Positions 6,173-20,638 of a DNA stretch of 35,061 bases are shown here, piece by piece. A program made the translations under genes and the position numbers. Position 1 is the first letter of the stretch. Each line of letters begins with the position of its first letter. This DNA is from Chryseobacterium gleum. Its GTDB lineage: Bacteria > Bacteroidota > Bacteroidia > Flavobacteriales_D > UBA2798. The stretch spans positions 1-35,061 of the forward strand of contig CAMBFX010000011.1 of the NCBI GenBank assembly GCA_945865695.1, written 5' to 3'. The notes under the pieces are model-generated. The model did not search any database and was not told where the DNA came from. It saw only the letters and a list, made by a program, of their open reading frames with translations.

Positions 6173-7264
6173 ATGGAAGATATCTCAAGAAGAAAATTCA
6201 TTCCATATTTTGCAGCTGGCGTAGGAGGATTAATGTTGACTTGCACCAATGGGATGAGTGAGCAAAATGAGAGCGAAAATCAGAGCGAGAAAGAGAGTGA
6301 GAGCGAAAAAAAACGAACAAGCGATAAGCCACTAACCGAAATAATTCCTATTCTTCCAAATGCTCTTAAAAAAGGAGATAAAGTAGGAATCATCGCTCCT
6401 GCAGGTCCATTGCGAGACACCAAACAAGCCGAAGAATTTGAAAAAAAATTACTCGAATTAGGATTTATTCCAGTGATGGGCGAGAACGTAAAATCACGAA
6501 ATGGTTTTTTTACTGCTTCTGACGAAAAAAGAAAACAAGAACTAGAAAAGTTTTTTGCTGATACAGAAATAAAAGCCATCATTGGTATAAAAGGTGGTTG
6601 GGGATGCGCGCGATTACTTCCCATTTTAGATTATGATTTAATTAAAGCAAATCCTAAAATACTAATGGGATTTAGTGATATCACTTCTTTGCTAAATGGA
6701 ATTACTTTAAAAACTGGTCTTATCACTTTTCATGGTCCTGTGGGCACAGCCACATGGTATGATTATTCATTAAACTTTATTAAAAGTGTGTTGATAAAAG
6801 GAGAAAAAACAGTTTTTAAACCTACCACCGATTTTAAAACATTGACTAAAGGAACTGCAGAAGGAATACTTTTTGGTGGAAATTTAAGTGTTTTATCTGG
6901 TTTGGTTGGAACAGAATATTTTCCAGATCCTTCAGGTAAAATTCTCTTTTTAGAAGATGTAGAAGAAGAGCCTTTTCGAATAGATCGAATGTTGACGCAT
7001 ATGAAATTGGCAGGAGTATTTTCGAAATTAAACGGAATTATTATTGGTAAATATCGTGATTGTATTGCCGAAGAACCCGATTTTTCATTTACTGTTGAAG
7101 AAGTTTTTGATGACCATTTTACCAATTTTCATATTCCTGTTTATCGAGGAGCGAACATCGGACATATCCGTGATAAATACACTGTTCCTATTGGGATAAA
7201 TGCAAAAATGGATGCCGATAATTGCATGTTTGAATTGACGGAGGCAGCCGTAAAATTGGATTAA
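6173..7264 (+). CDS. LD-carboxypeptidase (peptidase S66) with twin-arginine signal
   Basis: The 363-residue protein starts with a twin-arginine motif (SRRKF) and a hydrophobic stretch ending near LMLTC, which could be a weak lipobox. A Ser/Glu-rich linker (about residues 30-52) follows. The S66 domain from about 62 carries nucleophile S168 in GFSDIT, the Glu-rich EDVEEEPFRIDRM segment that supplies the catalytic Glu, and H331 in NIGHIRDK. S66 enzymes cleave the L-Lys/DAP-D-Ala bond of muropeptides during cell-wall recycling; most are cytoplasmic (LdcA), while a Tat signal suggests a periplasmic form here. The aminotransferase gene follows 11 bp downstream. The linker DNA is made of AGAGCGA-type repeats (6270-6306). 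Confidence 0.9.
   Translation: MEDISRRKFIPYFAAGVGGLMLTCTNGMSEQNESENQSEKESESEKKRTSDKPLTEIIPILPNALKKGDKVGIIAPAGPLRDTKQAEEFEKKLLELGFIPVMGENVKSRNGFFTASDEKRKQELEKFFADTEIKAIIGIKGGWGCARLLPILDYDLIKANPKILMGFSDITSLLNGITLKTGLITFHGPVGTATWYDYSLNFIKSVLIKGEKTVFKPTTDFKTLTKGTAEGILFGGNLSVLSGLVGTEYFPDPSGKILFLEDVEEEPFRIDRMLTHMKLAGVFSKLNGIIIGKYRDCIAEEPDFSFTVEEVFDDHFTNFHIPVYRGANIGHIRDKYTVPIGINAKMDADNCMFELTEAAVKLD
6270..6306 (+). repeat. AGAGCGA heptamers within the ldcA linker
   Basis: The heptamer AGAGCGA occurs at 6270, 6282 and 6300 and codes for the Glu/Ser-rich linker of the LD-carboxypeptidase. The same heptamer makes up the cluster at 994-1150. Confidence 0.55.
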
Positions 7265-11428: not shown

Positions 11429-11510
11429 GCAAAGTAAAATTGACAAGCCAAAAGATTGTGATTTCCATTCAATAAATTATCGCAGAAATTTTCTTCCTCT
11501 TCTCCCTACC

Positions 11511-11672
11511 TTATTTCATCCCCTTTTCGCTTGTGGCTTTTCGCTTTTCCCTTCTTAATTCATCCCTTGTGGCTTGTGGCTTTTCCCTTTTCCTTTCTTA
11601 ATTCTTCTCTCGTGGCTGCTGGCTTTTCCCTTCTTATTTCCTCCCTTGTGACATTTCGCTTTTCGCTTTTCC
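11511..11672 (+). repeat. Degenerate pyrimidine-rich tandem repeat before pfkA
   Basis: Four imperfect units start with TTAATT/TTATTT at 11511, 11555, 11598 and 11634 (spacing 44, 43 and 36 bases). They are built of phrases such as CTTGTGGCTTTTCCC and CGCTTTTCC. The plus strand is strongly depleted of A and G. A further TTATCTTTA at 11673 leads directly into pfkA. Function is unknown: it could be a Rho-loading region ending the M23 transcript or a leader of pfkA. Confidence 0.65.
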
Positions 11673-14689: not shown

Positions 14690-15040
14690 ACCTCCCCTGG
14701 GACAGGGGAGGATGAAAGACAAGATTGCTTAAAGTCTAAATTTAATTAGTAAAGTTTTGTAAATAATTTAAAGTTTATTTTCGGAGATATCTAAATCTTC
14801 CCCTTTCCAAGGGGAGGAATAAAGACAAGCGCGCTTAAAAATTCAGCAATGATTTAAAAGGTATTTTGTAATTATTGTAAAATTCAGATTCGGAGACATC
14901 CAACTCTTCCCCTTATCAAGGGGAGGAATAAAGACAAGCGCGCTTAAAAATTCATCAATTATTTAAAAGGCATTTTGTAATTATTGCAAAATTCAGATTC
15001 GGAGATATCCAAATCTTCCCCTTTCCAAGGGGAAGTACCG
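14690..15040. repeat. Tandem array of about 109-bp units with a CCCCTT/AAGGGG hairpin
   Basis: Hairpin cores begin at 14690, 14796, 14905 and 15014, spaced 106, 109 and 109 bases. Units 2 and 3 differ at only about eight positions; unit 1 is more diverged, and the fourth is cut off. Each core is a short perfect or near-perfect palindrome (for example CCTCCCCTG/CAGGGGAGG, 14691-14711). Between cores lie AAGACAAGCGCGCTTAAAAA and CAGATTCGGAGAYAT. No coding frame was found in 14663-15092. Confidence 0.85.
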
Positions 15041-18198: not shown

Positions 18199-18975
18199 AT
18201 GGCAACAAAGAAAAAACGACCTTTAATACTGGTAACCAATGATGATGATATCACAGCCCCAGGCCTAAAAGTGCTGATAGAATGTGTAAAATCGTTTGGT
18301 GATTTGCTGATTATCGCTCCTGATCGACCACAATCGGGAATGGGACATGCTATTACAGTTAATTCTCCATTAAGAATGTATCCTTCGGATCACCATAAAG
18401 GACACAGCGCTTTTGCTACTTCAGGAACACCTGTTGATTGTGTGAAACTGGGTATTTATGAAATTTTGAAAAAAAGTCCCGATTTAATTGTTTCTGGAAT
18501 TAATCATGGCTCTAATGTGAGCACGAATGTGCTTTATTCAGGAACCATGTCGGCAGCGGTAGAAGGTGCTTTAGAAGGAATTCCTTCTATTGGATTTTCA
18601 CTCTGTGATTTTAGTTATGATGCCGATTTTACTGGAGCAAAAACAATAGTAAAACAAGTAGTAAAACAAGTTTTAGCCAATAAAATGCCAGAGGGAATTT
18701 GTTTTAATGTAAATATTCCTGCTATACCAGCTAAAAAATTAAAAGGAATTAAAGTTTGTAGAATGGCAAAAGCTTTTTGGGATGATAAATTTGATAAGAG
18801 AAACGATCCTTTGGGCAAACCTTATTATTGGTTAACAGGTAAATTTCAAAATTTTGATTCGGGAGAAGATACCGATATGTGGGCATTGCAAAATAATTAT
18901 GCTTCATTAGTGCCTATTCAATTTGATATGACCGCTCACCATGCAATAGCTTCACTCAATAATTGGAAATTTTAA
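18199..18975 (+). CDS. surE: 5'/3'-nucleotidase SurE
   Basis: The 258-residue protein has the SurE fold: metal site TNDDD at 13-17, IIAPDRPQSGMGHAIT, SGTPVDCVKLGI, SGINHGSN with the metal-binding Asn, and YSGTMSAAVEGA. SurE is a metal-dependent phosphatase of nucleoside monophosphates linked to stationary-phase survival. In most family members the metal site reads NDDG; here Gly is replaced by Asp (residue 17). The two ligand Asp are kept. The next gene in the same direction (the membrane protein) starts 235 bp later, after a repeat array. Confidence 0.93.
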   Translation: MATKKKRPLILVTNDDDITAPGLKVLIECVKSFGDLLIIAPDRPQSGMGHAITVNSPLRMYPSDHHKGHSAFATSGTPVDCVKLGIYEILKKSPDLIVSGINHGSNVSTNVLYSGTMSAAVEGALEGIPSIGFSLCDFSYDADFTGAKTIVKQVVKQVLANKMPEGICFNVNIPAIPAKKLKGIKVCRMAKAFWDDKFDKRNDPLGKPYYWLTGKFQNFDSGEDTDMWALQNNYASLVPIQFDMTAHHAIASLNNWKF

Positions 18976-18976
18976 A

Positions 18977-19209
18977 TATGAAATATTCATGATTCCTAAA
19001 ACACCAACACACATGAATATGCCATATGACCGATAAATATCAAATTATATAAATATGAAATATTCATGATTCCTAAAACACCAACACACATGAATATTCC
19101 ATATGAACGATAAATATCAAATTATATACTTATGAAATATTCATATTTTTTAAAAAAACATGAACACATGAATAAAACATTTGACAATTGAAATATTAAA
19201 TTATATACT
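18977..19209 (+). repeat. 77-bp tandem repeat array ending at a start codon
   Basis: Units begin with TATGAAATATTCAT at 18977, 19054 and 19131 (spacing 77 and 77), and the next TATGAAA, at 19210 (spacing 79), is the start codon of the membrane protein gene. Units 1 and 2 are nearly identical; unit 3 is diverged and T/A-richer. Within a unit ATATTCATG and CATGAATAT can pair across about 20 bases, and ATGAA-ATA-TTCAT forms a small hairpin. The ATG in each unit opens a short frame (MKYS stop in units 1 and 2). Confidence 0.85.
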
Positions 19210-19210
19210 T

Positions 19211-19519
19211 ATGAAAACTTGGCAAGATAAATACGATACAGCAAAGCACGGAATGATTTTCTTTCTTATTTTATTTTTTATAGGATTGATTTTAGCCTAT
19301 TTCTCATTTGTTTATCCTTCTAGTTTAAAAGCCTTTTTTGGGATTATGATCAATGGAAGAAATGATATTCAAACACAATTATTCACTTTAACCATGTTGC
19401 CTGCACTTTTTGCATTTTACTTTGTTCAGTTTCGCTGGCAGATGCATCGCGCTTCAAATGTTTTTGTAGGAATGATGTTGTTCATCGCTACTTTTATGAT
19501 GGCCGCTAAATTCTTATAA
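19211..19519 (+). CDS. Small membrane protein, three predicted helices
   Basis: The 102-residue protein begins MKTWQDKYDTAKHGM; the TTG at 19181 is a less likely start because it lies inside the repeat array. Hydrophobic segments at about 15-37, 55-73 and 83-101 suggest three transmembrane helices. No family was recognised. The lpxB gene starts three bases after its stop, so the two are co-transcribed and the protein may have an envelope role. The unusual leader made of 77-bp repeats belongs to this gene pair. Confidence 0.75.
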   Translation: MKTWQDKYDTAKHGMIFFLILFFIGLILAYFSFVYPSSLKAFFGIMINGRNDIQTQLFTLTMLPALFAFYFVQFRWQMHRASNVFVGMMLFIATFMMAAKFL

Positions 19520-19522
19520 AGA

Positions 19523-20638
19523 ATGAAATATTATCTAATTGCTGGAGAGGCATCGGGAGATTTACACGGTTCAAATTTGATGAAACAAATCAATTTGAAA
19601 GATGCGAATGCTCAATTTCGTTTCTGGGGCGGTGATAAAATGGCAGAAACAGGAGGAAAACCAGTAAAGCATATTCGAGATTTAGCGTTCATGGGATTTA
19701 CGGAAGTGTTGGCCAATTTGAAAACTATTCTCAATAATATTTCATTATGTGAAAATGATATTTTGGAATTCAATCCGGATGCCTTAATTCTCATTGATTA
19801 TCCAGGATTCAATCTACGTATCGCTAAAAAAATTAAACCTTCGGGAATAAAAATTTTCTATTATATCTCTCCACAAGTTTGGGCTTGGAAACAATCACGC
19901 GTTCATACCATCAAAAAAGTAGTAAATAAAATGATGGTGATTCTTCCTTTTGAGCAGGAATTCTATCAAAAATTTGATTTTGCAGTTGATTTTGTTGGAC
20001 ATCCTTTACTTGATGCTATCGAATTAAAATCAGACGAAGAAAAAAAATCTCTTCGAAGCGAATGGAAAGTAGAAAATAAAAAAGTGGTGGCATTACTTCC
20101 CGGAAGTCGCAAACAAGAAATTAGTAAAATGCTTCCTATTATGCTTCAAATGAAAAAGCATTTTTCTAATATTCATTTTATGATTGCGGGCGCACCAGCC
20201 ATTGATGCGTCATTTTATGCACCATTTTTAGATAAAAACACTGAAATTCTATATGGACGCACCTATGATATTTTATCGGTTGCTGATGCAGCTTTAGTAA
20301 CTTCTGGTACTGCCACATTAGAAACCGCCCTTTTTGGCGTTCCAGAAGTAGTATGTTATAAAGGTGGAAAAATTTCGTATCAAATTGCAAAAAAACTGAT
20401 TAAAGTCAAGTATATTTCATTGGTGAATTTAATAATGGATGAACCAGTCATTAAAGAATTAATACAAGATGATTTGAATGAAGCTAACCTTAAAAATGAA
20501 TTAGATTTATTATTGAATGATTCTAAATATATTCAAAAAATAAAAACCGATTTCGAAAAACTACGTACAAAATTAGGTGGCGGGGGAGCTTCAGAGGTTA
20601 CTGCAAATCTCGTGTTGAAAACTCTCCAACAAGGCTAA
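19523..20638 (+). CDS. lpxB: Lipid-A-disaccharide synthase
   Basis: The 371-residue protein opens with MKYYLIAGEASGDLHGSNLM, the LpxB signature. Further motifs are DLAFMGFTEVL, LIDYPGFNLRIAKK, YYISPQVWAWK, LPGSRKQEI and TSGTATLETALFGVPEVV. It joins UDP-diacylglucosamine and lipid X to form the disaccharide backbone of lipid A at the cytoplasmic face of the inner membrane. The length is normal. It is three bases behind the membrane protein gene and 34 bases before the SpoIID-like gene, all in the same direction. Confidence 0.96.
   Translation: MKYYLIAGEASGDLHGSNLMKQINLKDANAQFRFWGGDKMAETGGKPVKHIRDLAFMGFTEVLANLKTILNNISLCENDILEFNPDALILIDYPGFNLRIAKKIKPSGIKIFYYISPQVWAWKQSRVHTIKKVVNKMMVILPFEQEFYQKFDFAVDFVGHPLLDAIELKSDEEKKSLRSEWKVENKKVVALLPGSRKQEISKMLPIMLQMKKHFSNIHFMIAGAPAIDASFYAPFLDKNTEILYGRTYDILSVADAALVTSGTATLETALFGVPEVVCYKGGKISYQIAKKLIKVKYISLVNLIMDEPVIKELIQDDLNEANLKNELDLLLNDSKYIQKIKTDFEKLRTKLGGGGASEVTANLVLKTLQQG

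What the first reader, a model, noticed from the sequence alone, without database searches (positions are those of the whole stretch)
18977..19213. 77-bp tandem repeats run exactly into a start codon
Seen: three units starting TATGAAA at 18977, 19054 and 19131, with the fourth TATGAAA being the real start of the small membrane protein coupled to lpxB. Each unit carries its own ATG, which opens a four-codon frame in units 1 and 2, plus hairpins. Copy number could change by slippage and set expression of the membrane protein-lpxB pair, or the array may be duplicated start regions.
Basis: partly seen in the sequence, partly recalled or inferred. Interest (0 to 1): 0.55.

Follow-up and report, generated by a model that had tools for sequence, protein, structure and literature searches.

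The report
Mobile element that lands on start codons
The three repeats in front of this gene are tandem copies of a tiny non-coding element, scattered through this and related bacterial genomes, that inserts itself exactly at gene start codons and supplies a replacement start codon.

Summary
The array is real: three units (77, 77, 79 bp; 75-95% identical) fill the space between surE and the small membrane gene coupled to lpxB. It is not a local minisatellite. The same unit occurs at ten other loci in this genome (13 copies at 11 loci) and in many genomes of another family of the order. Copies stand in front of unrelated genes (rpmJ, atpH, carA, gatC, hemH, purQ...) and end exactly at the ATG: 60 of 61 catalogued loci. 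Six recent copies in one genome are 96% identical inside the unit and random outside it, with ATGAA at both edges. Five ortholog pairs, one with and one without the element, show clean insertion at the native start codon. Insertion turns the native start into a short decoy ORF (often ATG-AAA-stop) and brings a new ATG. A hairpin covaries, and its 3' foot CAUnnn covaries with the new start nnnAUG. No Rfam match; no copy near a Y1 transposase. So this is probably a non-autonomous mobile element targeted to start codons; the array is repeated landing on one start, possibly plus one duplication. How it moves, and any effect on lpxB, is untested.

The parts
18199..18975 (+). surE; stop codon 18973-18975. 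In relatives whose junction could be read the next ORF starts within a few nt of, or overlaps, the surE stop
18978..19054 (+). element copy 1 (77 nt), from ATGAA to just before the next ATG
   Evidence: model R2 80.5 bits
19055..19131 (+). element copy 2 (77 nt), 95% identical to copy 1
   Evidence: R2 77.7 bits
19132..19210 (+). element copy 3 (79 nt), the most diverged (75-78%), directly before the gene ATG
   Evidence: R2 52.3 bits
18978..18991 (+). copy 1 hairpin, 5' arm ATGAAATATTCATG (probable native start codon plus element start)
19012..19025 (+). copy 1 hairpin, 3' arm CATGAATATGCCAT
19055..19068 (+). copy 2 hairpin, 5' arm
19089..19102 (+). copy 2 hairpin, 3' arm
19132..19144 (+). 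copy 3 hairpin, 5' arm (decayed)
19167..19180 (+). copy 3 hairpin, 3' arm (decayed)
19023..19028 (+). copy 1 guide hexamer CATATG, able to pair with nnnATG of a start
   Evidence: sequence; family covariation
19100..19105 (+). copy 2 guide hexamer CATATG
   Evidence: sequence; family covariation
18978..18992 (+). decoy uORF of copy 1, M-K-Y-S-stop
   Evidence: sequence
19055..19069 (+). decoy uORF of copy 2, M-K-Y-S-stop
   Evidence: sequence
19132..19191 (+). decoy ORF of copy 3 (19 codons)
   Evidence: sequence
19211..19519 (+). small membrane protein (102 aa, no Pfam match); start ATGAAA right after copy 3
19523..20638 (+). lpxB, 3 nt after the small membrane ORF

Best explanation
The array is three tandem copies of a small (usually 75-95 nt) non-coding mobile element whose target is a gene start codon in the context ATGAA. 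Shown: copies are dispersed before unrelated genes; both edges fall at ATGAA; orthologs without the element end their 5' flank at the native ATG; the hairpin and its CAU-to-start pairing covary. Inferred: the element is moved in trans by an unidentified enzyme that recognises the folded hairpin, with the CAUnnn foot acting as guide for ATG at either end; insertion duplicates ATGAA (or the element brings its own), so the old start becomes a decoy (ATG-AAA-stop in most copies) and the element's A/T-rich end provides a new start site, leaving the protein intact. At surE/lpxB a first copy (copy 3) landed 2 nt after the surE stop, and copies 1 and 2 came later by renewed landing or by duplication. 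Any effect on lpxB would come from breaking the tight surE junction and replacing the translation start; this is not shown.
For: Own-genome DNA search: three further places, all ending at ATGAAA starts. Covariance models R1-R3: more copies in the genome; 16 of 399 genomes of the order including own, the other 15 all in family f9; 13 of 40 f9 genomes, up to 7 copies. R2 and R3 exclude the tail before the ATG, yet 60 of 61 catalogued loci open an ORF of at least 36 codons there. A pattern with neither tail nor left arm gave 32 places in 12 genomes: 30 directly at ORF starts, one the inner copy of the G154 tandem, one (L122) before a 13-codon ORF. Six G395 copies: 96% identity inside, 32% in the 40 nt on either side. 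Target ATGAA in 59 of 60 against 116 of 301 starts in a sample of the own genome. Only 116 of 505 start-or-noncoding ATGAA sites in that sample are starts, so random landing with loss of coding hits would not give this. Five filled/empty ortholog pairs. Tandem pair of two subtypes in G154. Hairpin covariation. Guide/new-start pairing 127 of 150 cells against 110 shuffled, 0 of 5000 as high.
Against: No mobilising enzyme or autonomous copy was found. Start specificity could partly reflect selection rather than targeting. Old copies keep the pairing (rpmJ in the own genome and in G117), which hints at a function in place. Shuffle tests ignore relatedness. One copy (L122/L360) precedes only a 13-codon ORF. 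Some own-genome copies are weak by model score (carA E 0.15 and the sigma-factor copy E 3.4; the TonB copy was not listed there, E 0.21).
Confidence: 0.8

Rival explanations
1. A cis-acting RNA switch: the hairpin 3' foot CAU pairs either with the upstream decoy AUG or with the real start AUG, so it opens or closes translation; copies spread because they regulate.
For: Covariation of CAUnnn with the new start nnnAUG (127/150 cells against 110 shuffled); perfect pairs in unrelated loci: rpmJ CAUUUG/CAAAUG, carA CAUAUG/CAUAUG, L049 CAUAAU/AUUAUG, L229 CAUCUG/CAGAUG; folds in which inner hairpin and start hairpin coexist (L125, L229, L044).
Against: Downstream genes share no function; near-identical young copies at unrelated genes and clean empty sites show mobility first; copy 3, next to the lpxB partner, has lost the pairing (guide CATTTG against start context CTT).
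Confidence: 0.25
2. A REP/RAYT-type or IS200/IS605-derived element moved by a Y1 (HUH) transposase.
For: A single imperfect hairpin with unpaired bases and a short guide that pairs the cleavage-like site are features I recall of those systems; Y1 transposases occur in 15 of 18 genomes searched.
Against: No copy in 30 Y1 loci; G174 has 7 copies and no Y1 match; genomes without detected copies (G087, G099, G267) have Y1 genes too.
Confidence: 0.12
3. Local slippage minisatellite that sets lpxB expression by copy number.
For: Copies 1 and 2 are 95% identical and in tandem.
Against: Dispersed copies at ten other loci in the genome and in other genera; a two-subtype tandem in G154.
Confidence: 0.05
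4. Insertion through an RNA intermediate: a leader RNA joined to mRNAs at the start codon and copied back into the genome, like relic spliced leaders of dinoflagellates.
For: Start codons, a feature of mRNA, are hit rather than promoters: the distance from a perfect TAnnTTTG box to the native ATG runs from 4 to 49 nt, and many copies follow close behind another gene on the same strand; relic spliced leaders in dinoflagellates are seen in a search listing only.
Against: No splicing, ligase or reverse transcriptase link was tested; no leader gene was found.
Confidence: 0.07

Closest known systems
Small non-autonomous mobile repeats (MITE, RU, REP/REPIN)
   Same: Short, non-coding, hairpin-forming, dispersed, near-identical young copies with clean edges
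   Different: Those are described as intergenic or intragenic repeats (abstract starts seen); here the edges are start codons and the element supplies a new ATG. No linked transposase
Putative mobile promoters ('promoter propagation')
   Same: Similar sequence moved upstream of non-homologous genes (recalled; seen only as mentions in a search listing)
   Different: Here promoter-like boxes lie upstream of the insertion; the element enters at the start codon, downstream of the promoter or inside an operon
TAACTGA direct repeats next to start codons (PMC4679880; outline, abstract and passages read)
   Same: Tandem repeats within a few nt of start codons, unrelated downstream genes including ribosomal proteins, also in some Bacteroidetes, possible post-transcriptional role
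   Different: Heptamer repeats, not a hairpin unit of this kind; no insertion at the start codon with empty sites in the passages read; sequence unrelated
IS200/IS605 ssDNA elements
   Same: Hairpin plus short guide pairing with both end sites (works-like comparison, recalled)
   Different: No transposase linked; start-codon targeting; ATGAA repeated at both edges
Relic spliced leaders of dinoflagellates (search listing only)
   Same: Leader-like units at gene starts
   Different: No trans-splicing known here; bacteria; hairpin unit

Membership tests
Local minisatellite / VNTR | Unit confined to one locus | tested here: not met
   Same unit at ten other loci of the genome and in family f9
MITE | Short, non-coding, dispersed, young copies identical to sharp edges | tested here: met
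MITE | Target-site duplication | tested here: inconclusive
   ATGAA at the left edge in 52 of 58 and at the right in 59 of 60, but the left ATGAA may belong to the element
MITE | Terminal inverted repeats shared with an autonomous transposon | not tested
   The 3' arm is subterminal; no autonomous relative was found, terminal repeats were not scored
REP/REPIN-RAYT | Linked Y1 (RAYT) gene | tested here: not met
   0 copies in 30 Y1 loci; G174 has 7 copies and no PF01797 match
REP/REPIN-RAYT | GTAG-type foot at the hairpin (recalled) | tested here: not met
   The foot is ATGAA (alignment)
IS200/IS605 | Insertion 3' of a fixed short target recognised by an internal guide (recalled) | tested here: inconclusive
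   CAUnnn can pair ATG at both ends; beyond ATG only the right end covaries
Known Rfam RNA family | Match to a curated model | tested here: not met
   No gathering match in the window; no match at the element in 12 loci up to E 5
Riboswitch / translational switch | Alternative pairing that frees or hides the start codon | tested here: inconclusive
   Covarying CAU/start pairing and folds; no expression data
TAACTGA repeats | Tandem TAACTGA heptamers | tested here: not met
   Absent from the array sequence

The most novel reading that the evidence does not exclude
A new class of mobile element whose target is the translation start codon itself: it reads ATG through an internal CAU guide, turns the old start into a two-codon decoy and installs a new start, so it can land in essential operons without damage. 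If start codons are recognised as such, rather than by sequence alone, the intermediate may be mRNA.
Probability: 0.4. Interest if true: 0.9.

Novelty: new variant of a known kind. Interest (0 to 1): 0.75.

Why it matters
A selfish element that spreads without breaking genes by landing on start codons would be a new solution to the safe-site problem, comparable in logic to introns or tRNA-targeting elements. It would also put a standard hairpin leader and a decoy start in front of many unrelated genes, including rpmJ, atpH and a sigma factor, so it could rewire translation on a genome scale. It makes testable how a mobile element could recognise a translation start.

Tried and rejected
Local minisatellite as the origin: rejected, because the unit is dispersed. 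RAYT/Y1 link: not supported. Rfam: nothing. Phage or plasmid carriage: blastn with one f9 copy found nothing in the plasmid and phage collections; two viral contigs hold the 17-mer without the element's left arm or a start codon after it. lpxB loci from named genomes: 48 loci searched with R2 (42 of those 80, plus 6 loci), no copy. Pattern TCCATNNNACCNNTNAAA in the own genome: 59 matches against 34 for its control; 30 were read, of which five are copies already seen and one is the sigma-factor copy, also in the list. Longer, gene-bearing versions were looked for through the right-arm pattern; none seen. Left-arm pairing beyond ATG: not significant (74/150 against 70). Rows dropped before the pairing count (50 of 61 used): 7 without a CAT foot, and L122, L304, L322, L324, which lacked an assigned edge; left-edge counts use 58 of 61 rows for the same reason. 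Paper searches for a described start-codon-targeting element listed nothing that I recognised as such; only titles and abstract starts of those listings were seen.

Full report
Observation. The tandem array is as described: copies at 18978-19054, 19055-19131 and 19132-19210, the gene ATG at 19211. surE ends at 18975, so without the array (233 nt) the small membrane gene would start 2 nt after the surE stop. In the relatives whose junction I could read (L006, L007, L008, L010, L011, L013) this ORF begins within a few nt of the surE stop or overlaps it, which fits an insertion here.

The unit is dispersed. A DNA search of the own genome found three further copies; each again ends at an ATGAAA start: a small lipoprotein-like gene, an S46 peptidase and a short, probably broken ORF. 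A covariance model from six copies (R1) and then a model without the tail in front of the ATG (R2) brought the total to 13 copies at 11 loci. Other downstream genes by Pfam: atpH (OSCP), rpmJ (L36), carA, a PAD-type deiminase, a TonB plug protein, a LytTR regulator and a sigma-70 factor. In a 434,538-base sample (window plus 20 stretches) R2 separates true copies (52 bits and more) from noise (18.5 and less), apart from reverse-strand matches of the array itself (23 bits and less). The weaker copies (carA, TonB, sigma factor) rest on structure and position as well as score.

Other genomes. R2 found nothing in 39 close relatives but hit 16 of 399 genomes of the order, own included; the other 15 are all in family f9. 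R3, built from 33 copies and again without the tail, hit 13 of 40 f9 genomes with up to 7 copies. These are lower bounds: the tool scores only part of its candidates. f9 is probably Crocinitomicaceae, since LpxB of one f9 genome is 69% identical to that of Crocinitomix; this is inference. Two genomes of the window's own family had no match.

Always at start codons. Of 61 catalogued loci, 60 have an ATG opening an ORF of at least 36 codons at the right edge; the exception, L122, precedes 13 codons. The catalogue leaves out the window array itself, the first copy of the G154 tandem (whose right edge is the next copy), one degraded copy (L308) and three copies read later; the last four also end at ORF starts. 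Two loci carry about 50 extra nt in the tail and still end at the ATG. Of the right-edge starts 59 of 60 are ATGAA, against 116 of 301 starts in the own-genome sample; in that sample only 116 of 505 start-or-noncoding ATGAA sites are starts (simple ORF calling). Some loci are shared by descent (same gene in two genomes of a genus), so the 60 are not all independent.

Edges and empty sites. Six copies in G395 average 96% identity over the 90-nt unit and 32% in the 40 nt to either side; similarity begins at the A of the left ATGAA and ends one A after the right ATGAAA. In five ortholog pairs (gatC, a TlpA-like protein, a VPS10-type protein and a rhodanese: G395 filled, G400 empty; a sodium symporter-like protein: G400 filled, G388 empty) the upstream flank aligns at 67-78% up to the native ATG, and the coding sequence continues from it. 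In a sixth pair (the L239 gene) the flank in G395 holds what looks like the tail of an older copy, so I do not count it. In G154 two copies of different subtypes stand in tandem at one start. The names TlpA-like, VPS10-type and symporter-like are my reading of the sequences; rhodanese and GatC are Pfam matches.

Anatomy. The 5' arm starts at the native ATG: AUG-AA-AU.. with a variable stem; the 3' arm ends ..AU-UC-CAU, followed by nnnACC-nnU-AAAA and an A/T-rich stretch of about 15 nt to the new ATG. 43 of 54 left ATGs have a stop as third codon, using all three stop codons; since the internal loop there is purine-rich, this may be a by-product of structure. In one own-genome copy (L045) the left ATG is in frame with the gene. 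The foot CAUnnn pairs with the new start nnnAUG in 127 of 150 cells against 110 in shuffles (0 of 5000 as high), with the left flank only in 74 of 150 against 70 (50 of 61 rows usable). Perfect promoter-like TAnnTTTG boxes upstream of the left ATG are enriched (21% against 4% in shuffles) at 4 to 49 nt, and 36 of 58 copies follow a same-strand ORF within 300 nt. So the site is set by the start codon, not by the promoter.

Interpretation. Mobility with start-codon edges is shown by comparison; the mover, the intermediate and any benefit are not. Selection against copies elsewhere is a weak alternative for young copies, since noncoding landing would usually be harmless. The covarying CAU/start pairing can be a guide used in movement, a translation switch used afterwards, or both; its persistence at rpmJ in two families favours some use in place. 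At the window locus the copy nearest the gene has decayed pairing (guide CATTTG, start context CTT), so a working switch there is doubtful.

Known kinds. It resembles small non-autonomous repeats and works somewhat like guide-bearing ssDNA elements, but fails the tests for RAYT linkage and Rfam families. The nearest published parallel that I read is the TAACTGA repeats near start codons (PMC4679880: outline, abstract and passages). I found no description of a start-codon-targeted element in the searches made, which cover open-licence papers only.

Noticed in passing
window 14755-15033: Another intergenic tandem array, period 109, 2.6 copies, with a CCCCTT..AAGGGG inverted repeat in the unit
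   Followed up: no
window 11510-11672: Third array, period 36-43, unit rich in CTTTTCGCTTTTCCCTT, between two genes
   Followed up: no
L228 about 1443-1533, and L129 reverse strand: Both copies carry an extra ~50 nt tail segment with a GCTC-TCAT-GAGC hairpin, 83% alike over 93 nt in two genera, before a purQ-like gene and a universal-stress-like gene
   Followed up: partly
L003 1-420, reverse strand: The short ORF behind this copy looks like a broken remnant; the downstream peptide resembles the C-terminus of a restriction enzyme (recalled resemblance, not searched)
   Followed up: no
L004 81-500: 141-bp tandem repeat, three copies at 95% match
   Followed up: no
L143 (CALPVI020000157.1): Record titled Actinomyces viscosus encodes a Bacteroidota-type LpxB; probably a mislabelled bin
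   Followed up: no
L102, G000:C20 near 6343-6418: Copy in front of a sigma-70 family gene with the ATG only 23 nt after the start of the right-foot pattern instead of 34-35
   Followed up: partly
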